Origin: Chloroflexota bacterium
GTDB lineage: Bacteria; Chloroflexota; Anaerolineae; Anaerolineales; Anaerolineaceae
Assembly: GCA_012799995.1 (NCBI GenBank)
Contig: JAAZKE010000033.1
Span: forward strand, 1 to 41,034
Direction: 5' to 3'
DNA length: 41,034 bases
Notes under the pieces: generated by a model
Databases searched by the model: none
Seen by the model: only the letters and a program-made list of their open reading frames with translations
Told to the model about the DNA's origin: nothing
Translations under genes and position numbers: made by a program
Part shown: positions 19,707-41,034 of the stretch, one piece after another
Position numbering within the stretch: the stretch's first letter is position 1
Layout of the letters: each line of letters opens with the position of its first letter

Positions 19707-20420
19707 TCACATTACGGGATTCTTCAAAATATCGCTGTCCTGCAGAACAGAGGTATCGCCTTCATATATGATCTGCCCTTTTTGGAGAACGTACCCAAAA
19801 TTGGAGATTGATAATGCTTTATTTATATTCTGTTCAACCAACATGATCGTCAACTCGCGTTCATCATGCAGCTTTTTCAGGAATCGAAAAACTTCCTCAA
19901 CAATAATTGGCGCCAACCCTAAAGAAGGTTCATCCAAAATAAGAATCTTTGTATCATTGATAATCGCTTTTGAAATCGACAGCATCGTCCGTTCACCGCC
20001 AGACAAGGTGCCAGCCTTTTGCTGGAGTCTGTTTTTCAGAATCGGGAAGGAATGGAACACTTCTTCAAGCCGCTGTTCAAGGATGTTCTTATCATCAACG
20101 TTATAAGCACCCAGCCGAAGATTGGTCTCAACGGTCATCTTCGGGAAGGTTCCAGTTGCTGGGGATGCAACATGAATACCAGAGGATATTCGCTTATGGG
20201 AAGGAACATGGGTAACGTCCTGATCCATGAAGATGATTTTGCCCTTATCAGCACGAACCAGGCCCAAGATGGCTTTGACTAATGTGCTTTTCCCAGCGCC
20301 ATTTGGTCCAAGCACCGTGCAAACACTGCCTTTATGAACGCTCATGTTTACGCCCATCAACATCGGAATACGACCGTAAGAAGTGGATAAATTTTCTACC
20401 TGTAAAATTATATTGCTCAT
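19707..20420 (-). CDS. livF: Amino-acid ABC transporter ATPase LivF
   Basis: This 237-residue ATPase has Walker A GPNGAGKST (residues 38-46), signature LSGGE, and Walker B ILILDEPSLGLAP followed by EQN and an H-loop position replaced as is usual in LivF (MLVEQNINKAL). It overlaps livG by 4 nt and lies 39 bp before livK. It powers the LivHM channel as a heterodimer with LivG. Confidence 0.94.
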   Translation of the reverse strand: MSNIILQVENLSTSYGRIPMLMGVNMSVHKGSVCTVLGPNGAGKSTLVKAILGLVRADKGKIIFMDQDVTHVPSHKRISSGIHVASPATGTFPKMTVETNLRLGAYNVDDKNILEQRLEEVFHSFPILKNRLQQKAGTLSGGERTMLSISKAIINDTKILILDEPSLGLAPIIVEEVFRFLKKLHDERELTIMLVEQNINKALSISNFGYVLQKGQIIYEGDTSVLQDSDILKNPVM

Positions 20421-21193
20421 GATTCCTGTCCTCCGATGTATGCAGCGATTACTTCCGGATCATGAATGATTTCATCAAATACGCCTTCCGCAATCTTTGC
20501 TCCTGCATTTAAGACGATTATTTTCTCTGGAACGTGCTCCATCACTTTCATATCATGTTCAATAATGATGATTGCAATATCCTGCATTTTCTCTTTTATT
20601 TTGCCAATATCCCTCATCATCGTCATGGTCTCTTCATCATTCAAACCGGCAGTCGGTTCATCCAGCAGCAGCAACTTGGGATGGCTCACCATCGCACGTG
20701 AAATCTCAATCCGACGGCGATCGATATGCGGAATGTTCTTGGCAAGTTCATAGCGCTTGTCGAGCAGGTGGGGATTGAAATAACTGAGCATGTCCAGCCC
20801 GTGCTGCGCCAGTTTTTCAATTTCATGATTCACATAATTACGGCGAAAGATGGTATCCAGAAATCCATAGGATTGAGAGGTATAGCTGCCAATCAGCAGA
20901 TTATCCACCACGCTCAAATCCCAACAGAGACGGCTGGACTGATAGGTCCGCGAAATCCCCTTTTGGAAGACTTCAAAAGGCCTCAAATCAGTGATGTCTT
21001 CCCCATTTAAAAAGACCTTTCCCTTAGTCGCCTTATAAATGCCGCTGACAATATTCAGAAAGGTTGTTTTCCCTGATCCATTCGGACCGATGAGACCGAA
21101 GACCTGTCCGGGCTCGATTGAAAAGTCAACATCATCAACAGCCCAAATCCCACCGAAATTTATTGATAATCCTTTTGTCTCCAACAAACTCAT
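20417..21193 (-). CDS. livG: Amino-acid ABC transporter ATPase LivG with unusual signature motif
   Basis: This 258-residue ATPase has Walker A GLIGPNGSGKTTF (about residues 34-46), Walker B LLLLDEPTAGLN, and IIIEHDMKVM with the H-loop histidine. The ABC signature normally seen as LAYGxQRR in LivG reads KNIPHIDRRRIEISRAM here, so the usual signature glycine and serine are missing while the flanking sequence is kept. It is the first gene of the transporter operon, with GGAG 6 nt upstream of the start. Confidence 0.93.
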   Translation of the reverse strand: MSLLETKGLSINFGGIWAVDDVDFSIEPGQVFGLIGPNGSGKTTFLNIVSGIYKATKGKVFLNGEDITDLRPFEVFQKGISRTYQSSRLCWDLSVVDNLLIGSYTSQSYGFLDTIFRRNYVNHEIEKLAQHGLDMLSYFNPHLLDKRYELAKNIPHIDRRRIEISRAMVSHPKLLLLDEPTAGLNDEETMTMMRDIGKIKEKMQDIAIIIIEHDMKVMEHVPEKIIVLNAGAKIAEGVFDEIIHDPEVIAAYIGGQES

Positions 21194-21474
21194 GTGCTTC
21201 TCCTTAATTGGACCAGACCCTGTTTATAAAACTGAAACCGGCTTTGTAAATTTTATGTATCTATAAGATTAGATAATCTTTTTTGTTTTTCTCTTATTCT
21301 CTTATAAAGAAATATTCTTACGGTAAAAAACGATATCACTAATTTTTCTGTGAATCAAGACTTCTCTTCATCAAATAAATTTTATTGATAGTATCCATTA
21401 CACCAATAATTAATTTTTTTACATTTTGTTGATTGTTTTTAACAAAACATTCATTTTATTCTCTATGTAAGATT

Positions 21475-21488
21475 AAATCTTAAGATTT
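21475..21488. promoter_or_regulatory. Perfect 14-bp palindrome, candidate operator
   Basis: AAATCTTAAGATTT is a perfect palindrome in the 397-bp region between livG and the LysR gene. It has the T-rich/A-rich dyad expected of a regulator site and overlaps a second short dyad (AAGATT-A-AATCTT, 21469-21481). The rest of 21194-21590 is very AT-rich. It holds no gene that I can see, apart from the LysR terminator and presumably the livG promoter. Confidence 0.4.
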
Positions 21489-21528
21489 CTTCTGAATTTT
21501 GTAATAATCATATTTATTAAATAAATAT

Positions 21529-21560
21529 GAAAAAAGATGGGCTTATTTAGAGTGCCATCT
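21529..21560 (-). terminator. Intrinsic terminator after the LysR gene
   Basis: On the - strand AGATGG pairs with CCATCT across a 14-nt loop and is followed by six T residues. It lies 30 bp after the LysR stop, so the regulator and the downstream transporter operon are probably separate transcripts. Confidence 0.65.
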
Positions 21561-21590
21561 ATATAAATATATATAAGTATATAAATCTAT

Positions 21591-22496
21591 TTATTTTGAT
21601 TGATTGAAACGGTCTTCAATAACAAAGTCTTTGAATCGCATTACCAACGGAGATAATGTCCGTTTGGTTGGATAAACAAAATAGAACGAATGCTTGAATT
21701 CATAATCGTCCAGCGGCAACACTTTGACAAAGCCCGCCTTCACTTTGTCCTCCACTGAAATCTTGGAAACAATCGATAACCCCAGCCCGGCTTTCACACA
21801 TAACACAATCATTTCATTGTTATCCATCAATGAAAGGATTTGTGCAGATTTCCCGAGACTTGAGAATTTTTTATAAGCCAGATCGAAGGCCGCCCGTGTA
21901 CCGGACCCATCTTTTCGCAACAGTAAAGGCTCATCCAATAATCGTGAAAATGAGATGGACGTCATATCAGAAAACGGGGGTGCATTGGGTGCAATTACAA
22001 CCAGGTCATCGTCGGCAACTTTTTCATAAACCAGCTTGCGATGAGTTGGTTCGGCACCGATAAATCCAAAGTCCAAGTCACCGGAGATCAGTTGTTCGAT
22101 AATCTCACCGGAACTCAAATAATGCAGGTTATATGTAACATTGGGGAATTTTTTATTGAAGTTCACCAGGATATTGGGAAGGATATATTGACCAGGCACA
22201 CTACTGGTCGCGATATATAGCATTCCGTCAATTTTTCCCTGATATTTTTCAAGATTCAGCAGGGCGTTTTCACGCATATTCAAAATTTCAAGCGCGGAAA
22301 TGTAAAATTGCTGTCCGGCCGGTGTCAGTTCGGTTCGCTTATTGTTGCGCTCAAATAACGTTATCCCCAATTCTTTTTCCAGTTTGGCGATATGGTTACT
22401 TAATGCGGGTTGTGTGAGGAAAACATTTTTCGCAGCTTTTGAAAAGCTCTTTACTTTCGCAATGGCGATGAATGTTTCCAACTCCTTGAAATCCAT
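21591..22496 (-). CDS. LysR-family transcriptional regulator
   Basis: This 301-residue protein has an N-terminal winged helix-turn-helix (residues 1-60: FIAIAKVKSFSKAAKN, LTQPALSNHIAKLEKELG, LFERNNKRTELTPAG) and a C-terminal periplasmic-binding-like effector domain (about 90-290). It resembles the CysL/CbbR group in length and in the segment YIATSSVPGQYILP. It is transcribed towards the livG operon and lies between the amidohydrolase and transporter genes, so these are its likely targets. The ligand is unknown. Confidence 0.92.
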   Translation of the reverse strand: MDFKELETFIAIAKVKSFSKAAKNVFLTQPALSNHIAKLEKELGITLFERNNKRTELTPAGQQFYISALEILNMRENALLNLEKYQGKIDGMLYIATSSVPGQYILPNILVNFNKKFPNVTYNLHYLSSGEIIEQLISGDLDFGFIGAEPTHRKLVYEKVADDDLVVIAPNAPPFSDMTSISFSRLLDEPLLLRKDGSGTRAAFDLAYKKFSSLGKSAQILSLMDNNEMIVLCVKAGLGLSIVSKISVEDKVKAGFVKVLPLDDYEFKHSFYFVYPTKRTLSPLVMRFKDFVIEDRFNQSK

Positions 22497-22758
22497 TCCC
22501 TTGTTCTCACCTTCTTAGTAATAATTGTTTTATACCACAGATTGGTCTAAACAATGCCTGTATTTGATATTATTTTGCAAGTAAATTATATCGAAAAAGC
22601 AACAGCAATCTGACATCAAAATATATATGACTTTACTAAAAGTTTATTACTAAGTTTAAAACTGTTTTCACAATTCTTAGTTCACAAAATATCTTATTTT
22701 TATCGACCCATTTGCCTCGCCACTTATTTTTATATCAGAGCGTTTCCGGGTTAATAAT
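22497..22758. other. AT-rich intergenic region upstream of the LysR gene
   Basis: With the adjoining terminator this makes a 316-bp gap. It presumably holds the LysR promoter and any autoregulatory site. I see no reading frame with coding character, no tRNA and no clear -35/-10 pair. Confidence 0.5.
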
Positions 22759-22792
22759 AAATAAGAACCTTCCTAAGTGAAGGTTCTTATTT
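22759..22792 (-). terminator. Terminator hairpin after the amidohydrolase gene
   Basis: A perfect 13-bp inverted repeat, AAATAAGAACCTT and AAGGTTCTTATTT, surrounds an 8-nt loop. On the - strand the stem is followed by a T-rich ATTATTAA stretch. It lies 20 bp past the amidohydrolase stop. Confidence 0.8.
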
Positions 22793-22812
22793 GAATTCAT
22801 AAGCTTTTTTGA

Positions 22813-24210
22813 TCAATCTTCGATTGGGCGAATGAATTTCCCGCTTGGCTCACCAACAATCTCGCCATCAACCATAATGGTTTTTCCGCGTAAAATTGTC
22901 TTCACTGGTTTCCCAACCATTTCCCATCCATCGTAAGGAGAAAGTTTGGTTCGTGAATGCATGGATTCCTGCGAGAAGGTGTATTCCTTATTCATATCGA
23001 TAACCACAATGTCCGCGTCTGTACCAACTTCAAGTGATCCCTTCATCGGATAGGTTCCAAACATCCGGGCAGGTTGCTCTGACAGAACACTCACCAGATC
23101 ATTGATTGACAGACGACCTTGATTGACAAAGTTGATCATCACCAGCGGCATGGTCTCGATGGTAGTATTTCCTGCCGGAGCTTCCCACAGACTCTTCTTT
23201 TTCTCTTCGTAAAGGTGAGGCGCATGATCGGAGCAGACAAAGGGAAGCGTGCCATCCAGTAATCCTTCCCATAATTTGTCCTGGTGATATTTATCTCTGA
23301 CTGGCGGATATCCTTTTATTAATGAACCCAGGCGATCACCATCTTTGTCTGTCAGCGCCAGATATTGCGGGCATGTTTCCCCAGTTACATTGAGACCTTC
23401 CTCCTGAGCATTGCGAATCAGATCCGCACCTTCACCAGATGCCAGATGCGCAATATGCAGACGTGTTCCCAGCTCTCGGGACAGCGCAATCCCCGTTTCA
23501 ATAATGATATTTTCAGTAACGGCGGGACGTGAGCGCAACATTGCTGCGTAGGAGGTATCACCACTGGCTTTTACCTCTTCCGTGAGCAGCTTGATGATAT
23601 CAAAGTTTTCTGCATGAATTGCGAGCAATTTGCCGGTTTTTGCAACTTCACGGAAAACTTCATAAATCTGTCCCTCATCAAGCGGAGGAAAGACATCCTT
23701 CATGCCCTCCTGATAGTTATAGATCAACTGATAGTCATGGTCAAGAGCATATCCCCAGAAGAGTTTAAAGGCAACCACACCTGCCTCTGCAAGGGGAATC
23801 AGGTCAGCATTATTTAAACCGATGCACAGTCCCCAAACGCCAAAGTCAACGTATGCTTTCGGTGTAATTGTTTCTATCAGGTCATTCAACATTGCAACGT
23901 TGTAAATTGCAGGAGTGCTATTAGGCATCTCATAAATGGTGGTTATACCGCTGGCAGCACCAGCCGCAGATGAGTGAGCAAAATCTTCTTTATGGTGAGC
24001 ACCCTTTGATCCATCTCGGGAGTGGGTATGTGTATCAATAAAACCAGGTAAAACAAATTTTCCGCTGGCATCCGTTATTTCATGCGCATCACTACCCAGA
24101 TCTACGGTAGAGACGGCTGCAATTTTGCCATCCTTGATGTAAATATCGGCCTGATAACTATCAGTCGATGTAACGATTGTTCCGTTTTTAACGATATGAT
24201 CCCATTTCAT
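22813..24210 (-). CDS. Cyclic amidohydrolase, allantoinase/dihydropyrimidinase type
   Basis: This 465-residue enzyme belongs to the binuclear-metal amidohydrolases. It has the HxH metal pair in DTHTHSRDG, the carboxylated-lysine site in VAFKLFWGY, metal histidines in AIHAENF and HIAHLASGEG, and the catalytic aspartate in CSDHAPH. TGETCPQYL resembles the allantoinase and dihydroorotase families. It would open a cyclic amide ring such as allantoin, a hydantoin or a dihydropyrimidine; the exact substrate is not readable. The start at 24210 has AAGGAGN7ATG, whereas the upstream in-frame ATG at 24243 has no site. With two molybdenum hydroxylases nearby, a purine or heterocycle route is plausible. 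Confidence 0.88.
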   Translation of the reverse strand: MKWDHIVKNGTIVTSTDSYQADIYIKDGKIAAVSTVDLGSDAHEITDASGKFVLPGFIDTHTHSRDGSKGAHHKEDFAHSSAAGAASGITTIYEMPNSTPAIYNVAMLNDLIETITPKAYVDFGVWGLCIGLNNADLIPLAEAGVVAFKLFWGYALDHDYQLIYNYQEGMKDVFPPLDEGQIYEVFREVAKTGKLLAIHAENFDIIKLLTEEVKASGDTSYAAMLRSRPAVTENIIIETGIALSRELGTRLHIAHLASGEGADLIRNAQEEGLNVTGETCPQYLALTDKDGDRLGSLIKGYPPVRDKYHQDKLWEGLLDGTLPFVCSDHAPHLYEEKKKSLWEAPAGNTTIETMPLVMINFVNQGRLSINDLVSVLSEQPARMFGTYPMKGSLEVGTDADIVVIDMNKEYTFSQESMHSRTKLSPYDGWEMVGKPVKTILRGKTIMVDGEIVGEPSGKFIRPIED

Positions 24211-32452: not shown

Positions 32453-33046
32453 TTACATCCGATTGCGAATGAACGCGTCGACCGTCATTCGATCTACATG
32501 AAATATTTTGGCAATTTGGGTTTTTGGGACTTTCTGTTCTAATAATACCCGGATTGTATGTTCTTTCCCAGACAGTTTTACTTTGCTTGATTTCCTGCCG
32601 AGCGGACGACCAAGTACGACCCCTTCGGCTCTTTTTCTTGCCAGCGCTTCTTTCGTTCGTTGACTGATCAGGTTCCGTTCTATTTCTGCGGAAAGCCCAA
32701 ATGCAAATGCAAGTACTTTGCTTTGGATGTCGTCTCCTAACCTGAAATGGTCTTTTATCGTCCAGACTTTACATCCCGTTGACAGGCAGATATTCAGGAT
32801 CTCCATGATCATGTACAGGTTTCTGCCAAGCCGCGAAATTTCGGTGCAGATAATCAAATCATCCTGCTTAACTTTCTTTAATAAAACCCCGAGACGCCGC
32901 TTATGATAATGCTTGGTTCCGCTGATTGTTTCTTCTATCCAGCCATCAATCTGAATATTTTCCTTCTCGGAAAACTTATTTATCTCAAATCGTTGGTTTT
33001 CGACATCCTGTTTTTCAGAACTGACACGTATATATCCATAGTTCAT
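32453..33046 (-). CDS. Small serine recombinase (resolvase/invertase family)
   Basis: This 197-residue protein has the catalytic serine S9 in YIRVSSEKQ, the active-site arginines R72 and R75 in SRLGRN, the long E-helix region (FAFGLSAEIERNLISQRTKEALARKR) and a C-terminal helix-turn-helix (VPKTQIAKIFHVDRMTVDAF). This is the pattern of Hin/Gin-type invertases and resolvases. The ATG at 33046 has GGAGG 5-9 nt upstream; the ATG at 33097 lies inside the 40-bp inverted repeat and has none. The repeat ends 25 bp upstream of the start, so the gene is placed to invert the neighbouring methyltransferase 3' segment. It may be co-transcribed with that gene. Confidence 0.92.
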   Translation of the reverse strand: MNYGYIRVSSEKQDVENQRFEINKFSEKENIQIDGWIEETISGTKHYHKRRLGVLLKKVKQDDLIICTEISRLGRNLYMIMEILNICLSTGCKVWTIKDHFRLGDDIQSKVLAFAFGLSAEIERNLISQRTKEALARKRAEGVVLGRPLGRKSSKVKLSGKEHTIRVLLEQKVPKTQIAKIFHVDRMTVDAFIRNRM

Positions 33047-33070
33047 ATCATCCTCCGCTTGATTTAATAT

Positions 33071-33110
33071 ACCGATTTTAAGGGGCAGGGATATCAAACG
33101 CTACGGGTAT
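33071..33110 (+). repeat. Inverted repeat, left arm of invertible segment
   Basis: This 40-bp sequence, starting ACCGATTTTAAGGGGC, is the exact reverse complement of 34329-34368. It encodes PILRGRDIKRYGY in the reading frame of the silent cassette. Imperfect similarity extends inward for about 29 bp more with five mismatches; outward it ends abruptly. Confidence 0.95.
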
Positions 33111-33122
33111 AACTTTGCCGAT

Positions 33123-33734
33123 TTGTGGTTGATTGCTACTTTTCCAAGCAAAAAATACAACATCGAAAAATTTCCGGAAGTGAAAAGGCATCTTCTGTCG
33201 TTTGGTATTAATCGACTAGAGCAGAGTGGTAAAAAGTATGTTATCAATGGTCAAATAATAAATGCGAGAAAAAAGACGAATAATAAATGGTTCGAAACGC
33301 AAGACAATATAGGTTATTGGGAGGATTTTTCTAAGCAAAAGATAATCTACAGCGAAATAGTAAGGAATCCTCAATTTTATTATGATCAAAAAGGTACTTT
33401 TTTTGTCGAAGCTACAGCATTTTTTATGACCGGAATTCACTTGGATTATCTGACCGCGCTCCTTAATTCGAGAGTTTTTTCATATATTTTTAAAACTTTT
33501 TACGCTGGAGGTGGATTAGGTAGTGAAGGTTATCGGTATAAAAAAGCATTCCTGATAAATATGCCAATACCAAAATATAAAGCTTCGCCAATACAAAAAC
33601 AGATAATAAACCTTTGCAATACAAGAAGTTTACGAAATCACGTTGAGATTGATAATGAAATAGAAAAATCTATTATCAATTTGATAGGTCTATCGCGCGA
33701 TGAGGCAAATATAATTAATGAAGAAATTAATTAA
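33123..33734 (+). CDS. Silent alternative target-recognition domain cassette (TaqI_C-like)
   Basis: The frame is open from 33063 and reads PILRGRDIKRYGYNFADLWLIAT before continuing into an alternative C-terminal domain. The active gene has PILRGRDIKRYGYDFADLWLIAT at the same point. The domain has the same landmarks as the active one: QKIIY, a DxxGTFF/DEQGKFF-like segment, FYAGGG against FYMGGG, and MPIPK against LPVPY. Elsewhere the two are very different, as expected for DNA-recognition domains with different targets. There is no ribosome site or promoter, and TTG at 33123 is only a nominal start, so this is a stored 3' end and not a stand-alone gene. From the repeat inward it supplies 207 residues. 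Confidence 0.85.
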   Translation: MWLIATFPSKKYNIEKFPEVKRHLLSFGINRLEQSGKKYVINGQIINARKKTNNKWFETQDNIGYWEDFSKQKIIYSEIVRNPQFYYDQKGTFFVEATAFFMTGIHLDYLTALLNSRVFSYIFKTFYAGGGLGSEGYRYKKAFLINMPIPKYKASPIQKQIINLCNTRSLRNHVEIDNEIEKSIINLIGLSRDEANIINEEIN

Positions 33735-36700
33735 TTAGTACTTGAATTTCAAAATTTCCTTCTTTTCAGCCTCGTTTAAGTCAAAGGCTTTTTGAACTTC
33801 TAATTCTATTTCATCACTTATTTCGGCTTTCAAAGAAGGCTTATTATTTCTGATCATCGCTAAAACTAATTCTTCAATTGAGTTGGCTCTAGTAGTTATA
33901 TACGGTACAGGGAGAATTAATAATCGGTTCGTTTTCAATTCTCCTTCTATCCCTCCTCCCATATAAAAATTTCTCAAAGCATAATAGATAGTCTTAGAAC
34001 ATAGAAAACCGAGTAAATATAAAATTGATTTACCAGAAATAATATTTCCTGGTGCAATAGTAAAAAATTTTCCTTGTTCATCGAACATAAAACTGGGCCC
34101 TTGTGCCATAATACAAGGATAAATAATTTTTTGCTTATAGAAATCCTCCATATAAGTACAATCTCGAAGATTATATGGGGTTGCTCCTTGATCAAATCGT
34201 TTTCTTAACGAGGGTTGAAATTGTTTAAGATGATCTTTAATAGCCGGATAGCGATTTACATCGATAAGAGGAGTGTTGGTTCTTGTTATCCCGTTATGTG
34301 TGGCAATCAGCCACAAATCTGCGAAGTCATACCCGTAGCGTTTGATATCCCTGCCCCTTAAAATCGGTCTTATAATCTCTGCGGATTTTGGGTCTCTGGC
34401 AATCAGTTCGTCTTTTTTTGCGCCATCGATTATAAACGCTTCATTTAAACCTGTAAGAATTCCTCTGTTTATTGTTATATCCCAATCTTTTAATGGTGTT
34501 CCCAGAGCCTCAACTTTCTTCAGAATATCCTTCTCAATGTCGGTTAAAATTAACCACAATTTATTTGGGCTAAAGACATTTTTTATGCTCATTGATTTAA
34601 TATATGAATGTAAGTCTTCTTTTGCCCATTTGTCCAATATCTTACACGATAAGGTCTCAGAGTTACTCAGTATATTCTCGAAAATAAGAATGGCTACATC
34701 GACAGTAGCAGCCTCAAATACCTTGATTTTTGTGAAATCAATAATGTAGACAGGGGTCGTGTTATTAGCAAGAAAGTCTCTAAGCGATTCACCATATTCA
34801 GCACGCATCCATTTATTTGAGGTGATCATGCAAAAAACACCGGCATTGTCTTTCAAAAGGTTGTAACCTTGTTCAATAAAAAGACAATAAACATCCCCGG
34901 TTGCTTGATGCACCTCAAAGCCTGCATTTCTATATAGCTTATATACTTCCGAATTGGCTCTCTTTATTTTTGACAATTGGATATAAGGCGGGTTTCCTAT
35001 TACAATATCAAATCCATGGTTAATACCCATCATCGAGGGTGGATCAAAGAAATTCGCGGACTCGTTTTGATTGAAGGGATCCCACTCTGAAAGCAATTTT
35101 GCATCTTCATTGTCGAATCCTGACCTGGTCAGGATTTCCCCCATCTTTTTCCGGGTTTCTTTATCAGATTGTTTAATTCTTTCTTTTTCTTCCGCAGGTA
35201 ACCCGGAAAATAGTTTGTGCCGCAGATCATCCAGCTTTTCTTCCTGCAGGATTAATTCAGGATCTTTCAAATGTAAATCTTTGGAAAGGCTCAGCAGTGA
35301 GTTTGCTGCCACGAATTTCATTTCCAGGTTGGGTAGCGCTTTCACACCCCAATTCGGTTGTTTTTTATCGATCGTCTGATCAACCAGCAAAGAGATAAAA
35401 AATCGCAGCTTTGTGATTTGAATGGCAATCGGTTGAATATCAGCCCCATAAATACATTTCTCAATCAGATAGAGCTTTCTCCCATAATCTTCGCTATGAA
35501 AGTCAAAATCGTTCTCGATCTGTTGAATTCGATCTTTGCGTATTGTGTTGTCTTCAAGCTGATAAGCTTCTTTCGTTTTTTGAACAGCTTCTTCAATAAG
35601 AATTGTTTTCCAGAGATAATTTTCCGGGTCCAGCTTACCTAAAACATGGACCAGTTTATGTAAAATACCCATTGGAAAAGCGCCGGAACCACAAGCAGGG
35701 TCCAAAACCCTGAGGTCTTTGATGGCCTGTATCAGCAGATTTGTTTCTTCTTCGGAAAAAGTTTGCGGCTCAGTATCGTAACTAATTAGGTTTTCAAGGC
35801 ATTCCTCAAGCGATTCAGTTATAGGCAGGCTGTTCTGGTTGGGGCCAAACATACCAGGTTGAGTAGGCACGACTGATCGTGATCTGTGAGAAACATTCAC
35901 CCCATGGCTTTCCAGATAATTCCGGAAATAGAGCAATAAAGATTCATCAACCATGTATTCAACAATTTCCCGCGGTGTATAAAAACTGCCAGTTTCTTTC
36001 CGGGCTGTTTCTTTGGTTTCAGGGTTGAAGTAAGCCAGCAGGTTTTCAAAGACCTGTCCAAGCAATTCGGGATCCAATGCAATTTCTTTATCATCAGCAG
36101 TGTTTTCGTCAATGGTGAAGTTATATTCACTGAAAATATTAAAGATACCTTTTGTCGCAAACCGACTGTTGTTTGTCCCCATTTCCTTATTTAGGTCAGG
36201 TTTTAGTTCATCAGCAAAAAAAAGTTTGTTGGGAACTGACGGTTGATACTTTGTTCGCTCAGTAAACCCATCGATATATATGTTCTCTTTTCCTTTATCA
36301 AGACACTCAAATAAACCGCCATTCAGGAAAGGAATATTCTCGAAATATTCAGGGATTTTATTGGACTCAACAAACAAATCATGGTATCGGCAGACTGAAG
36401 TGTTTCCAAAATCTTCATTCCGCCATTGGTTTTCCTTGTTTTCTTTTCTGAATCTGCGTTTATCCTGAGGCGTATTCAGTGTAGCAAAAAACAGATTTTG
36501 GAGAATCGCCAGATAATATGAATTTGACTCGTCTTCAACAGATACCAAGATATTTTTAACTGCTCTTTCATCAAAGAGTTCACGGTTGATCAGCCCCTTT
36601 TCCCGCATGAACCAGATAAATATCAGCCGGGTAACCATACGTATGACCGATGTATTCCGCTTTTCATCATTTTTGCCAGTGTCATCTGGCCATTTACAAA

Positions 36701-37256
36701 TCTGACAAGCGTACAGATACCAGTAGAAGATTTCATTGTAAAATTCCCTGGTTACCTTTTCAACCGAAAATACCTCTTTTATATGCTCAATTGAGTCATA
36801 GTTTCCATTTAGAATCTGGTTTCTGAAAGTTTTGTTGGTTTGATCTTTGGACACGAAAAAAGTTGACCGCTTAAAGCTGGAAAATTTCTTTTTTGTTCCA
36901 AAATAACTGATCGATATCAAGGATAAACGAAAACTACCCTGGTCATCGTAAAACGCAAAGATGCCGGCGTCATATTGGATCAGATCTTTAAGTACCTTTT
37001 TCCCTTTTTCATATTGGGCTTTTTTCCCGCTTTTTTCGGTTAAAGGCTTTTTAACCCGAAACGAATAGAATATTACTCGTTCATGTTGTTGTAAAGAGAG
37101 TTCTCCAAGGCAACAACTCTGATCGAAATCGTCATCGTCATATTCGTTAATAAATTGATTACTGTATCGAAATGAGTCATTCATTTCCTCCGCGAGCAAT
37201 TGAAATTTTGCGTTATCGAAATTATCTATTAGATTTAGAAGAATATTTGGTCTCAT
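33735..37256 (-). CDS. Eco57I/PglX-like adenine DNA methyltransferase with switchable specificity domain
   Basis: This 1173-residue protein has an N-terminal region of about 400 residues with no nuclease motif that I can confirm, GSFYTPREIVEYMV (motif X), the SAM motif DPACGSG at 519-525, and catalytic NPPY at 755-758 (gamma-class N6-adenine methyltransferase). A C-terminal TaqI-like target-recognition domain begins after PILRGRDIKRYGY (964-976). That string is encoded in the 40-bp repeat, so residues 977-1173 can be exchanged for the silent cassette, giving a predicted 1183-residue variant. It overlaps the helicase stop (ATGA) and has AGGTGAT upstream. It probably sets both modification and restriction specificity. 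Confidence 0.93.
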   Translation of the reverse strand: MRPNILLNLIDNFDNAKFQLLAEEMNDSFRYSNQFINEYDDDDFDQSCCLGELSLQQHERVIFYSFRVKKPLTEKSGKKAQYEKGKKVLKDLIQYDAGIFAFYDDQGSFRLSLISISYFGTKKKFSSFKRSTFFVSKDQTNKTFRNQILNGNYDSIEHIKEVFSVEKVTREFYNEIFYWYLYACQICKWPDDTGKNDEKRNTSVIRMVTRLIFIWFMREKGLINRELFDERAVKNILVSVEDESNSYYLAILQNLFFATLNTPQDKRRFRKENKENQWRNEDFGNTSVCRYHDLFVESNKIPEYFENIPFLNGGLFECLDKGKENIYIDGFTERTKYQPSVPNKLFFADELKPDLNKEMGTNNSRFATKGIFNIFSEYNFTIDENTADDKEIALDPELLGQVFENLLAYFNPETKETARKETGSFYTPREIVEYMVDESLLLYFRNYLESHGVNVSHRSRSVVPTQPGMFGPNQNSLPITESLEECLENLISYDTEPQTFSEEETNLLIQAIKDLRVLDPACGSGAFPMGILHKLVHVLGKLDPENYLWKTILIEEAVQKTKEAYQLEDNTIRKDRIQQIENDFDFHSEDYGRKLYLIEKCIYGADIQPIAIQITKLRFFISLLVDQTIDKKQPNWGVKALPNLEMKFVAANSLLSLSKDLHLKDPELILQEEKLDDLRHKLFSGLPAEEKERIKQSDKETRKKMGEILTRSGFDNEDAKLLSEWDPFNQNESANFFDPPSMMGINHGFDIVIGNPPYIQLSKIKRANSEVYKLYRNAGFEVHQATGDVYCLFIEQGYNLLKDNAGVFCMITSNKWMRAEYGESLRDFLANNTTPVYIIDFTKIKVFEAATVDVAILIFENILSNSETLSCKILDKWAKEDLHSYIKSMSIKNVFSPNKLWLILTDIEKDILKKVEALGTPLKDWDITINRGILTGLNEAFIIDGAKKDELIARDPKSAEIIRPILRGRDIKRYGYDFADLWLIATHNGITRTNTPLIDVNRYPAIKDHLKQFQPSLRKRFDQGATPYNLRDCTYMEDFYKQKIIYPCIMAQGPSFMFDEQGKFFTIAPGNIISGKSILYLLGFLCSKTIYYALRNFYMGGGIEGELKTNRLLILPVPYITTRANSIEELVLAMIRNNKPSLKAEISDEIELEVQKAFDLNEAEKKEILKFKY
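34329..34368 (-). repeat. Inverted repeat, right arm of invertible segment
   Basis: This arm is identical over 40 bp to the reverse complement of 33071-33110. It encodes residues 964-976 of the active methyltransferase, at the junction between the catalytic core and the target-recognition domain. Confidence 0.95.
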
Positions 37257-40200
37257 ATCACCTGATTTTCTATTGAAATAATGATTTCTTTTTTGGTTTT
37301 TGACAGACGGGCTTTTTCTTTTTGAAGATAATCTGCCCCAATATTATCTTTTAACTTAATGAGCGCATCAACAGCATCTTTTATTTGTTTGGAATTTACA
37401 AGCTTCAATTCAGCGATACGCCGCAAAGTGTAATCTGGAAGTGTACCAAAATGATCAATATCTTCCAGGAGCGTGTTAATAAATGGTTGAAGATCTGAAA
37501 ATTCAGGAATTTGACTTTGCAAAATTGTCTTCAGGTTATTCCTGGCTTTTGCTTCAGAGCTTTGTGGAGATGTTTTACTGCCAGTTGTTTCCTTAATAAT
37601 TTTTACTTTCTCATAGTTTTTCCAAAATTTATTGCTGAGTTCAAGACGCGGTTCATTCACGTTACATTCAATTTTTTCTAATGCATCTTCAAAAGAATAT
37701 TGCGTGACCTGAGAGGGTTCATCATAGGAAATCCCTTGAATAAAGAGTCTTCCCTTCCTGAACAGAATTAACTGTTCATCGGTTTTTCCAACTTTCGAAA
37801 CTTTCACACGTGGAGGGAAATTATTTAATTCTTTGACTAAATCCGGGTATGTTTTAGTAATATCCTCAAATCGATTAACCATCTTTGTAAAAAAGCTCTC
37901 TTCTTCATTGTCATCTGGATTTCTGTTAATCCTTTTATACAGTTCCGCAGCGCTTGGTTCTTCATCCGCATCGAATATTTTCGCATCTTCGCCCAAAATA
38001 GAATGGATCATGAACATTTTCGCAGAAGCGATTTCTCTGCTTTTAATTCTTTCTGCTCCTTTTTCTGTTGGGAAAAAGTTAACAATGTTTAGTGTCGAGA
38101 AAACTTTTTTGCTGATACGGTTTATACGCCCCAGACGCTGAATAACCCTGACCGGATTCCAGGGAATATCATAGTTTACGACCATACCGGCCCGATTCAG
38201 GTTAAAACCTTCAGAGATTTTATCCGTACCTAATAAAATATCATAATCATCACATTGATTTTGGCTGGATGCATCGAAATTATTGGCAATCGTCTGAATT
38301 GTTGTACCGGTTAAACTGTAGGCAACGTATACTCTGTTGCCAAAAGAATCACCCAAAATCTTCGCCAAATGCTCCAAAGTATCACGATACTCGGTAAATA
38401 CAACGATTTTCCTTTTGGGTTCTCCGGGTAGAACACGGGATGACAAAACTTTTTTGGCATTATTTACTAAACATTCACCTTTTGGATCATTTTCAACCAG
38501 TTTCTCTTCTTCCAACTTCAAAAGAATTTCTTCAAAAAGTCTTATATCACTTCTAATATGTTTAATAAACTTTTTCTTTTTTTCGAACTCGTTTACATCG
38601 AAAACACGATTTCGATTTGATGGCTTCTCTGTACTGTACTGGCTGTAAATTTCATCGAGGATTTCTTCAATTTCATCTGCATCCCTATCCTCAATATTTT
38701 CCAGTAGCTTTCTGTTCAAAATATATTTACCTGTTTTCTCTATGAAAGCCAAACATTTTTCGGTTATTCCTTTGAAACGGACAATTGACTTTTCAAATGC
38801 GCTGAACGAACTCTCAAAACGTTTCACCAACAACCGTCTCATAAAATTGGACAGGTTCTGTTGCATGATGTATTCAAAGTTTTCTTCTTCGGTCAAATCA
38901 CGATCGATGTCTTTTTCATATACAAATGGTCGATAGATTGCTCCTGTAAATCGGCCATCCTCATCAGGGTTTGCAAAATATACAGATAGGATTTTGTCAT
39001 AGAAGTCAAGCTGATCCGAGGTTAATTCAAAAAACCATTCAACAGGATCATCAACTTTCGACAAATTATTTACTTCTTTACTGTAAGCAGGATTCTTTTG
39101 AAGATCAAGCCGGTTTCGCCGGATCGTTACCGGTTCGATTACATCCCGAATTTCATTGGCAAGAATTCTGGTTCTCTGATTGACTTTATTAATATCTATT
39201 GGCAGAGATCCTATCAAAGCTACGTAAGAATCTTCAGCTTTGGTTTTCTTGTTTGAGTCTAATGACTTATAGTTCTTTTTTATATAAGCCAGTTTGTCAA
39301 ATACAGATTGGTATTCTTTAAATTTTCTCTCCAAATTATTTTGTAACGTGATTGCCGATTTTTTAGGTGAAATGAACAGCTTTAGCAGAGAAAGGAAATC
39401 GCCTGGTCGGTTGTTGAATGGTGTCGCTGTTAATAGGATAACGATTTTATCTCTGCAGATATTGCGAAGATGTTCGTAATCCTGTGTGTTTTGATTTCGA
39501 AATCGGTGCGCCTCATCTATAATGACAATTTCAATATCGTTCGTTTTGCGAACAAACTCTGCTGTTCTTTCGAGATCTCCCAAAGAGCGAACTTCCCATC
39601 CAGGCATATTAAATTGTCCGAGGTACATTCTCCAACCACTGTTCCGGTTCTGATCCCCAACCAAACCTGGTGGACATATTACAATACCTCGCTTCTTTAG
39701 TTCATGTCCGATTGCACAGGCTATGATCGTTTTTCCAAGCCCTACCACATCTGAAATAATTACCCCATTGTTCTGCTCAATAATTGATTTCGCCTGACTG
39801 ACAGCATCTAATTGATATTTATAAGGGGTATAATTTGCAATCCGCATTAGATCAATTAATGAATCGCCTACTACTCCTGCTTTAAAAGCATCTAAATAAG
39901 TTTTAAGGGAAAGAACATACGCTTCAAATGGTGTTATCCTGCGAACCATAGTTTCTATTTTGATTGTTTCAACTACTTTTGTTTTAATATCATCCTTTTC
40001 TGTAATTTCAATGGATGATTCCCATAAGTCGTCAAAATAATCTTCTGCTTCTTTTGTTCCATAATCGCTGATTTCTACATTAAATTCAGCCTGTTTAGTC
40101 AAACCGGGAAAAGTCAGATTACTGCTGCCTGTGATAAATGCCTCTGTCTTGAATCCCGAATCAGATCGAAAAAAATACAACTTAGAATGATTTGGTTCCC

Positions 40201-40579
40201 TGGTTTTTCGAATTAGCAGCCGATCCTTCATTATCATATCTATAAAAAAAGGAACCTGTTCATAATAGTCACTGGTGTCTAACGCTTCATTTGACAGGGT
40301 TTTCTTCAAATCAGAAAGATAAGCGTTTCGTTTGTCATCGATTGAAGGAGCAAGCGTAAAATCGGTTTTACTGATTGTTTCGATTGTATTGTCAGTATTC
40401 ATACCAACAAGAATTTTCATTGTTACATTCGGTTTTTTGATTAATGATTCGTATAATTCTTTTATTCCGGAAAAATAAAAGTACCCAACCAGAAATTTCA
40501 TCTCTTTACAGTTTTTAATTAATTCCAGAAGTCTCTCACGTAGATTTTTAATTTTGTCGTTTGTAATGAAATTAGACAT
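37253..40579 (-). CDS. PLD-nuclease/SNF2-type helicase restriction subunit
   Basis: This 1108-residue protein has an N-terminal phospholipase-D-like domain (about 1-190) with one HxK site (H131, K133 in HSKLYFF) and GSSN at 151-154. A superfamily 2 helicase follows: DVVGLGKT at 277-284, DEAH at 355-358, TATPFNN at 384-390, and a C-terminal helicase lobe with IVVFTEY, TDKISEGFNL and VIQRLGRINR. A single HKD motif suggests a dimeric nuclease, as in BfiI. Next to the methyltransferase this is best read as the translocating and cleaving part of a two-gene restriction system. The start has no clear ribosome site. It leads the operon; the 324-bp gap upstream (40580-40903) shows no gene. Confidence 0.92.
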   Translation of the reverse strand: MSNFITNDKIKNLRERLLELIKNCKEMKFLVGYFYFSGIKELYESLIKKPNVTMKILVGMNTDNTIETISKTDFTLAPSIDDKRNAYLSDLKKTLSNEALDTSDYYEQVPFFIDMIMKDRLLIRKTREPNHSKLYFFRSDSGFKTEAFITGSSNLTFPGLTKQAEFNVEISDYGTKEAEDYFDDLWESSIEITEKDDIKTKVVETIKIETMVRRITPFEAYVLSLKTYLDAFKAGVVGDSLIDLMRIANYTPYKYQLDAVSQAKSIIEQNNGVIISDVVGLGKTIIACAIGHELKKRGIVICPPGLVGDQNRNSGWRMYLGQFNMPGWEVRSLGDLERTAEFVRKTNDIEIVIIDEAHRFRNQNTQDYEHLRNICRDKIVILLTATPFNNRPGDFLSLLKLFISPKKSAITLQNNLERKFKEYQSVFDKLAYIKKNYKSLDSNKKTKAEDSYVALIGSLPIDINKVNQRTRILANEIRDVIEPVTIRRNRLDLQKNPAYSKEVNNLSKVDDPVEWFFELTSDQLDFYDKILSVYFANPDEDGRFTGAIYRPFVYEKDIDRDLTEEENFEYIMQQNLSNFMRRLLVKRFESSFSAFEKSIVRFKGITEKCLAFIEKTGKYILNRKLLENIEDRDADEIEEILDEIYSQYSTEKPSNRNRVFDVNEFEKKKKFIKHIRSDIRLFEEILLKLEEEKLVENDPKGECLVNNAKKVLSSRVLPGEPKRKIVVFTEYRDTLEHLAKILGDSFGNRVYVAYSLTGTTIQTIANNFDASSQNQCDDYDILLGTDKISEGFNLNRAGMVVNYDIPWNPVRVIQRLGRINRISKKVFSTLNIVNFFPTEKGAERIKSREIASAKMFMIHSILGEDAKIFDADEEPSAAELYKRINRNPDDNEEESFFTKMVNRFEDITKTYPDLVKELNNFPPRVKVSKVGKTDEQLILFRKGRLFIQGISYDEPSQVTQYSFEDALEKIECNVNEPRLELSNKFWKNYEKVKIIKETTGSKTSPQSSEAKARNNLKTILQSQIPEFSDLQPFINTLLEDIDHFGTLPDYTLRRIAELKLVNSKQIKDAVDALIKLKDNIGADYLQKEKARLSKTKKEIIISIENQVI

Positions 40580-40809: not shown

Positions 40810-40903
40810 AACCGCATATTGAGAACAGGTAGCATTATGTCTTCAAACATAGAATTCAACCCGGGAATCCGCATCATACCATCGTTGATATAGAAGCGTG
40901 CCA

Positions 40904-41034
40904 ATGGCTGAACACAAGTTACACACCCATCCAATCCCGCCACTCTACAATGAGCACTCACGGGTGCTGATTCTCGGTTCTTTCCCTTCGCCAAAATCGC
41001 GCGAGAACAGGTTCTTCTACGGACATCCGCAAAA
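40904..41034 (+). CDS. DNA-deoxyinosine glycosylase, N-terminal part (cut by window end)
   Basis: The frame from the ATG at 40904 reads HPIPPLYNEHSRVLILGSF, then PSPKSRENRFFYGHPQ, and runs off the window. This is the conserved N-terminal signature of the uracil-DNA-glycosylase-fold DNA-deoxyinosine (hypoxanthine) glycosylases, which remove deaminated adenine from DNA. The ribosome site is weak (AGAAG). The frame is open over 43 codons. It is unrelated to the defence genes and marks the return to housekeeping sequence. Confidence 0.85.
   Translation, partial: MAEHKLHTHPIPPLYNEHSRVLILGSFPSPKSRENRFFYGHPQ

What the first reader, a model, noticed from the sequence alone, without database searches (positions are those of the whole stretch)
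32453..40579. Phase-variable restriction-modification system with its own serine invertase
A PLD-nuclease/helicase gene and an adenine methyltransferase gene are followed by a silent, oppositely oriented recognition-domain cassette and a serine recombinase. A perfect 40-bp inverted repeat lies in the same frame in the active gene and in the cassette, exactly at the catalytic-core/recognition-domain boundary. Inversion would give a methyltransferase with a different DNA target. Recombinase-driven swaps of this kind are known for Type I hsdS and for some BREX pglX loci. I do not recall one built from a PLD-helicase partner and a serine recombinase, but I could not search.
Basis: partly seen in the sequence, partly recalled or inferred. 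Interest (0 to 1): 0.95.

Follow-up and report, generated by a model that had tools for sequence, protein, structure and literature searches.

The report
Restriction system that flips its targeting
A bacterium, probably of the Anaerolinea group, carries a predicted DNA-marking defence system whose target-choosing domain exists as one predicted-active and one predicted-silent back-to-front copy, both beginning at the same exact 40-base inverted repeat; a predicted DNA-flipping enzyme next door would likely swap the two and so retarget the system, and two Lactococcus plasmids hold the first part of the matching region in swapped, opposite positions.

Summary
A PLD-SNF2 helicase gene overlaps an Eco57I-type adenine methyltransferase gene by 4 bp; a convergent spare target-recognition domain (TRD) and an Mpi-family serine invertase follow. 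A perfect 40-bp inverted repeat lies in frame in both TRD copies; virtual inversion gives a 1183-aa methyltransferase with its first 976 residues unchanged. The island (35-40% GC) sits in an Anaerolineaceae-like genome (48-51% GC beside it). Counting the window, 18 loci have this methyltransferase family beside an Mpi-family invertase, 12 with a helicase in view. In 16 loci where both copies can be compared, homology starts at one of two places in the gene (14 clear, 2 less so). Lactococcus plasmids pJM1F and pUCCL629A have near-identical outer flanks but about 490 bp inside swapped between active and silent positions; one crossover maps to 12 bp at the predicted site. A third conserved block splits the TRD into halves found in many combinations. 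Not shown: both orientations in the window's own population, recombinase activity, or a motif change. Invertible Type I hsdS appears in papers seen here; BREX pglX and Type II inversions are recalled. Filed as a new variant of a known kind.

The parts
37253..40579 (-). PLD-SNF2 helicase, 1108 aa, predicted restriction partner
   Evidence: PLDc_2/RE_NgoFVII, SNF2-rel_dom and Helicase_C in Pfam; HSK, GSSNL, GLGKT, DEAH motifs; below cut-off for DrmD, DpdE and NF042964
33735..37256 (-). Eco57I-type adenine methyltransferase with the active TRD, 1173 aa; overlaps the helicase gene by 4 bp
   Evidence: Eco57I E 8.4e-39; best PADLOC-DB match a Type IIG model, 8.1e-140; DPACGSG and NPPY motifs
33735..34368 (-). 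active TRD, from the inverted site to the stop
   Evidence: identity with the virtually inverted product ends here
33063..33734 (+). spare, predicted-silent TRD cassette: open frame from a stop codon, no good start
   Evidence: TaqI_C E 1.8e-10 for 33123-33734
33071..33110 (+). inverted site at the cassette end (block1), 24 bp upstream of the recombinase start
34329..34368 (-). inverted site in the methyltransferase gene (block1, codons P-I-L-R-G-R-D-I-K-R-Y-G-Y)
33071..34368 (.). predicted invertible segment, 1298 bp
   Evidence: virtual inversion
33314..33349 (+). block2 in the cassette, mid-TRD
   Evidence: 81% inverted match to the other copy over 36 nt (I2); carries GATTWTN6CA
34120..34155 (-). 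block2 in the active gene, mid-TRD
   Evidence: I2
32453..33046 (-). Mpi-family serine recombinase, 197 aa, predicted invertase
   Evidence: NF009949 above cut-off; Resolvase E 5.8e-32; aligns with solved DNA invertases and resolvases

Best explanation
This is a predicted restriction-modification locus, a PLD-SNF2 helicase plus an Eco57I-type adenine methyltransferase, with a predicted-silent convergent spare target-recognition domain and an Mpi-family serine recombinase, and that recombinase is likely to invert the 1.3-kb segment between the two 40-bp inverted sites so that the spare domain would replace the active one. Shown from sequence: gene order, repeat, frame match, recurrence in other genomes, the few places where homology starts, and swapped positions in two Lactococcus plasmids. 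Inferred: that the recombinase does it, that it happens in this host, that the methylated and restricted motif changes, and that the helicase restricts unmarked DNA. Cells in the two states would then protect different motifs, giving mixed resistance to phage or plasmid DNA. A third block inside the TRD probably lets TRD halves be exchanged, by the invertase or by homologous recombination.
For: Perfect in-frame 40-bp repeat at the core/TRD boundary, unique in the genome. Mpi-family invertase 24 bp away. Same arrangement in 17 other loci. Homology of active and spare copies starts at block1 in 6 and block0 in 10 of 16 compared loci; L103 and L108 are less clear. pJM1F vs pUCCL629A: outer flanks 98.2% and 100% over 600 bp each; spare copy of one equals active copy of the other at 100, 98.3, 100%, reciprocal pair 90.0, 84.7, 83.8%, active-active 70.0, 75.0, 52.3%; crossover within 12 bp. 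Shared half-site-like motif at three blocks: 36 of 38 matches in 33 copies lie at the blocks; codon shuffles give mean 3.3, maximum 10.
Against: No reads, no alternate orientation of the window's own allele: besides the own protein the best of the 120 listed hits is 54% identical. 10 of 33 copies lack the strict motif at every block. In the Lactococcus pair the C-halves are unrelated past block2 (45-54%), so a single inversion does not explain the whole difference. No methylome, no activity test. The site class does not follow the recombinase tree.
Confidence: 0.8

Rival explanations
1. The inverted copies recombine by general homologous recombination or gene conversion, and the recombinase is only a passenger of the mobile island.
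For: Several relatives have long inverted repeats, such as 291 bp at 98% in L104, and TRD halves occur in many combinations across loci.
Against: Homology starts at the same two places across distant loci, some shared stretches are as short as 17-40 bp, the Lactococcus crossover lies at the outer edge of a 267-bp, 72-75% repeat, and an invertase of one family sits beside the cassette in 18 loci.
Confidence: 0.12
2. In this host the locus is a frozen relic: it flipped in an earlier host but the invertase is not expressed or active here.
For: The island looks acquired: GC 35-40% against 48-51% beside it; the invertase is in 1 of 61 relatives searched and 2 of 400 phylum genomes, own included. 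No second orientation was found.
Against: All frames are intact and the 40-bp repeat is perfect, although two drifting copies would be expected to differ.
Confidence: 0.15
3. The switch serves mainly gene regulation by a changing methylome (a phasevarion) rather than defence.
For: Phasevarions are described for phase-variable methyltransferases (PMC11868660, passages).
Against: A helicase partner, here with a PLD domain, argues for restriction; a helicase is in view in 12 of 18 loci, 10 by BLAST and 2 by annotation. No expression data either way.
Confidence: 0.2

Closest known systems
Invertible hsdS of Type I systems (B. fragilis hsdS shufflon, PMC3090145 passages; S. pneumoniae hsdS inversions, PMC4948785 listing)
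   Same: Inverted repeats inside specificity genes exchange TRDs; a recombinase gene lies beside them
   Different: There a separate HsdS subunit, and tyrosine recombinases in these two cases; here a single-chain Eco57I-type methyltransferase, a PLD-SNF2 helicase and an Mpi-family serine recombinase. Serine invertases at hsdS are recalled (Huang et al. 2020, not held)
Programmed inversions in Type II restriction-modification genes (Milman et al. 2023) and in BREX pglX; both recalled, the former not held
   Same: Gene-altering inversion of a methyltransferase's target domain
   Different: I cannot check whether those include this helicase-methyltransferase-cassette-Mpi unit, its site map or the half-TRD exchange
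Mpi/FinA master invertase of Bacteroides fragilis (PMC5903667 and PMC3090145 passages)
   Same: Same recombinase family
   Different: Mpi flips at least thirteen scattered regions; here one pair of sites was found in the genome within 3 mismatches
Phase-variable Type IIG enzyme of Campylobacter jejuni (title only, in reference lists)
   Different: From memory that one is an on/off repeat-tract switch; here the target domain is exchanged

Membership tests
Invertase-driven TRD-swap inverton | Inverted repeats in frame in an expressed gene and a spare TRD cassette, with an invertase gene beside them | tested here: met
Invertase-driven TRD-swap inverton | Both orientations occur in nature | tested here: inconclusive
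   swapped positions in a Lactococcus plasmid pair; not seen for the window itself
Invertase-driven TRD-swap inverton | The methylation motif changes with orientation | not testable with these tools
   needs methylomes of both states
Type IIG restriction-modification enzyme | gamma-type N6-adenine methyltransferase core with a TRD in one chain | tested here: met
Type IIG restriction-modification enzyme | Nuclease domain in the same chain | tested here: inconclusive
   no nuclease Pfam match at E 0.001; fold matches include MmeI and BpuSI, N-terminal domain not examined on its own
BREX | PglX above its cut-off, with the other BREX genes | tested here: not met
   PglX model 73.5 bits, cut-off 500; the helicase is the only other system gene in the island
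DISARM | DrmD above its cut-off, with drmA, drmB and drmC | tested here: not met
   DrmD 141.1 bits, cut-off 610; only four genes in the island
Type I restriction-modification | Separate HsdS subunit | tested here: not met
   the TRD is part of the methyltransferase chain
Mpi master invertase family | NF009949 above its cut-off | tested here: met
   314.4 bits, cut-off 272
Mpi master invertase family | Acts on many scattered sites | tested here: inconclusive
   only 2 sites within 3 mismatches of a 20-bp core in the genome; a looser consensus was not tested

The most novel reading that the evidence does not exclude
One small serine invertase runs a modular specificity shuffler: it uses up to three classes of sites written into conserved codons of the methyltransferase in two reading frames (upstream of the linker, at the core/TRD boundary, and in the middle of the TRD), so that whole TRDs and separate TRD halves are flipped in and out and new restriction specificities are built combinatorially.
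Probability: 0.35. Interest if true: 0.85.

Novelty: new variant of a known kind. Interest (0 to 1): 0.7.

Why it matters
If it works as read, a single-chain methyltransferase with a helicase partner can change its target by one reversible DNA flip without losing the system. A clonal population would hold several protection patterns against phage and plasmids, and a switchable methylome. The site map and the many natural pairings of TRD halves also suggest which TRD parts can be exchanged, a known difficulty in retargeting restriction enzymes. Lactococcus plasmids make it testable in a harmless dairy organism.

Tried and rejected
The window's other orientation was sought in the protein database (best 120 of 8000 scored rows seen): no close relative, so nothing to compare. 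Near copies of the L103 locus on plasmids: none. Linkage between site class and recombinase clade: none beyond chance (98 and 115 of 500 shuffles as low; bootstrap not settled), so separate recombinase specificities are not supported. A dyad that would fix the core dinucleotide was looked for by eye; outer half-sites are too variable, so I give a 12-bp interval, not a core. The first half-TRD clustering (single linkage) merged 32 of 34 N-halves because it included the conserved motif; I redid it with the motif trimmed, average linkage and a 40% threshold. P. intermedia Pin17FIII looked like a methylome lead but is a pair of Type IIG genes (passages). BREX and DISARM membership rejected on scores. 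Ten literature searches found no description of this arrangement among the rows listed (some searches listed only part of what matched). Three papers looked up by DOI were not held, so absence from print is not claimed.

Rows left out: L155, L044 and L040 are not among the 16 compared loci (a copy is missing or cut at a contig edge). L103 has an ambiguous base at the site and L108's spare copy is offset there; both are counted as block0. L106_act, L155_cas and the L044 copy had no recognisable block pair in the clustering. One search listed 51 rows, which are 49 distinct places; I examined 48 (47 fetched plus L030) and left out one further place in L030's genome.
Full report
WHAT IS THERE. On the minus strand an 1108-aa PLD-SNF2 helicase gene (37253-40579) overlaps an Eco57I-type methyltransferase gene (33735-37256) by 4 bp. 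A convergent open frame on the plus strand (33063-33734) encodes a second TRD without a good start, and a 197-aa serine recombinase follows (32453-33046). The arms 33071-33110 and 34329-34368 are identical over 40 bp and 89% alike over 76. No other copy was found in the genome. Beyond the repeat the two TRDs are unlike: 18% identity in the N-half, 24% in the C-half. With the island's codon usage, full codon agreement over the 13 shared residues has a chance of about 5e-7, so the DNA itself seems to be kept, not only the protein.

FAMILIES. The recombinase is above cut-off for the Mpi-family invertase model. The methyltransferase matches a Type IIG model best in PADLOC-DB (8.1e-140) and BREX PglX only below cut-off. 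The helicase has PLD (HSK, GSSNL) and SNF2 motifs and scores below cut-off for DrmD, DpdE and the PLD anti-phage protein. An AlphaFold model of the methyltransferase (mean pLDDT 83.9) matches CamA, BseCI, PglX/BrxX and MmeI among solved structures.

HOST AND ORIGIN. A neighbouring IorA-like protein has its best named relatives in Leptolinea and Anaerolineaceae, so the host is probably Chloroflexota. GC is 48-51% in the 7 kb before the island and 35-40% in it; another stretch of the window (21001-23000) is also at 36%. The invertase was found in 1 of 61 relatives searched, the own genome, and in 2 of 400 of the phylum, own included (E 1e-40). The island was probably acquired.

THE SAME UNIT ELSEWHERE. 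Methyltransferase relatives with an Mpi-family invertase beside them: 6 of 15 loci from species genomes, 4 of 7 from the viral collection, 6 of 48 places examined from a 395-genome sample of Pedobacter puniceum's phylum, and 2 of 5 plasmid records opened, out of 169 records with a match. L030 is in two of these sets; with the window this makes 18 loci. In L040, L041 and L155 only the TRD-bearing end lies on the contig. A helicase was in view in 12 of 18: 10 by BLAST, 2 by annotation (their PLD domain was not tested). The labels Campylobacteraceae (L031) and Planctomycetaceae (L040) of two MAGs may reflect mis-binning; that is a guess.

WHERE THE EXCHANGE HAPPENS. In 16 loci where both copies could be compared, homology begins at one of two places. 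Block1 is just before P-I-L-R-G-R-D (window, L030, L041, L109, L114, L117). Block0, about 85 residues upstream, begins at a serine codon that is AGC in 18 of 18 copies shown for its loci (L031, L033, L101, L103, L104, L106, L108, L127, L161, L164; L103 and L108 less clear). A third block, (M/W)EDFYKQK, lies mid-TRD. The three blocks share GATTWTN6CA, in two reading frames: 38 matches in 33 copies, 36 of them at the blocks, against a mean of 3.3 (maximum 10) in 200 codon shuffles. The copies are related, so this is not a probability, and 10 of 33 copies lack the strict motif at every block. At block1, copies in invertase loci use GGC for the glycine in 26 of 34 cases and CCG for the proline in 20 of 34; copies with no invertase in view, 4 of 19 and 2 of 19. 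At least one of the latter, L034, ends at a contig edge.

NATURAL SWAP. Lactococcus plasmids pJM1F (L164) and pUCCL629A (L161) carry the same invertase accession. Outside the block0 site they agree: 98.2% on the gene side, 100% on the cassette side, 600 bp each. Inside it, up to block2, the spare copy of pUCCL629A equals the active copy of pJM1F (100, 98.3, 100% in three windows), the reciprocal pair is 90.0, 84.7 and 83.8% alike, and active-active is 70.0, 75.0 and 52.3%. The crossover lies in a 12-bp interval. Past block2 all six pairs are unrelated (45-54%), so C-halves were replaced as well. Two sister plasmids (L162, L163) keep helicase and methyltransferase without an annotated cassette or invertase. 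A survey of Lactococcus plasmids lists the 15.36-kb JM1 plasmid CP016750 (called pJM1D there) among complete Type II systems; 'invertase' and 'recombinase' do not occur in its main text (PMC6458302, passages).

TRD HALVES. In 34 copies, 5 N-half and 19 C-half types (40% threshold) occur in many combinations: one N type with 14 C types, and 6 of 19 C types with more than one N type. In 0 of 15 loci do active and spare copy share an N or a C type.

INDIRECT SIGNS OF MIXED STATES. A draft of Pedobacter antarcticus has a scaffold gap inside block0's neighbourhood, 21 bp past its start, and a contig starting at block2; the same-genus genome G005 breaks at block1. Mixed orientations are one possible reason, not a proof.

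NOVELTY. TRD-swapping inversions in Type I hsdS are in print (PMC3090145 and PMC5903667 passages; PMC4948785 listing). For BREX pglX, and for Type II genes as a class (Milman et al. 2023, not held), I rely on memory. What may be new is the conserved helicase-methyltransferase-cassette-Mpi unit, its site map and the half-TRD exchange. Ten searches of an open-licence library found no such description among the rows listed.

Noticed in passing
L165 (Prevotella nigrescens plasmid NZ_CP082843.1): 7673, 10284, 13021: An Mpi-family invertase stands beside three Eco57I-type methyltransferase pieces that share GACCCTCAAAAGAGGG just before catalytic motif IV (F-D-I-V-I-G-N-P-P-Y); one pair is a 34-bp inverted repeat. 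This looks like a three-copy variant that would swap catalytic part and TRD together.
   Followed up: partly
L155/L043 (Pedobacter antarcticus), L155:2-1473: Next to the invertase two block1 sites follow one another and one N-half is cut short, so more than two TRD pieces may be stored there.
   Followed up: partly
L162, L163 (Lactococcus plasmids pUCCL635A, pLLUC147A): Helicase and methyltransferase without an annotated cassette or invertase: perhaps a locked descendant of the switch.
   Followed up: partly
L167 (Desulforapulum autotrophicum plasmid pHRM2a), 7001-14311: An Mpi-family invertase is followed by helicase, DUF4391 and methyltransferase genes; no inverted repeat longer than 16 bp was found in the stretch.
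   Followed up: partly
window 32453-33110: The invertase start is 24 bp from the site, so much of its upstream DNA lies inside the invertible segment and its expression could depend on orientation (sequence).
   Followed up: no
window 40898-41032: The start of another gene runs off the contig just beyond the island; from memory it resembles a DNA-deoxyinosine glycosylase.
   Followed up: no
window 20001-23000: GC dips to 36-40% around ABC-transporter and LysR-type regulator genes; cause unknown.
   Followed up: no
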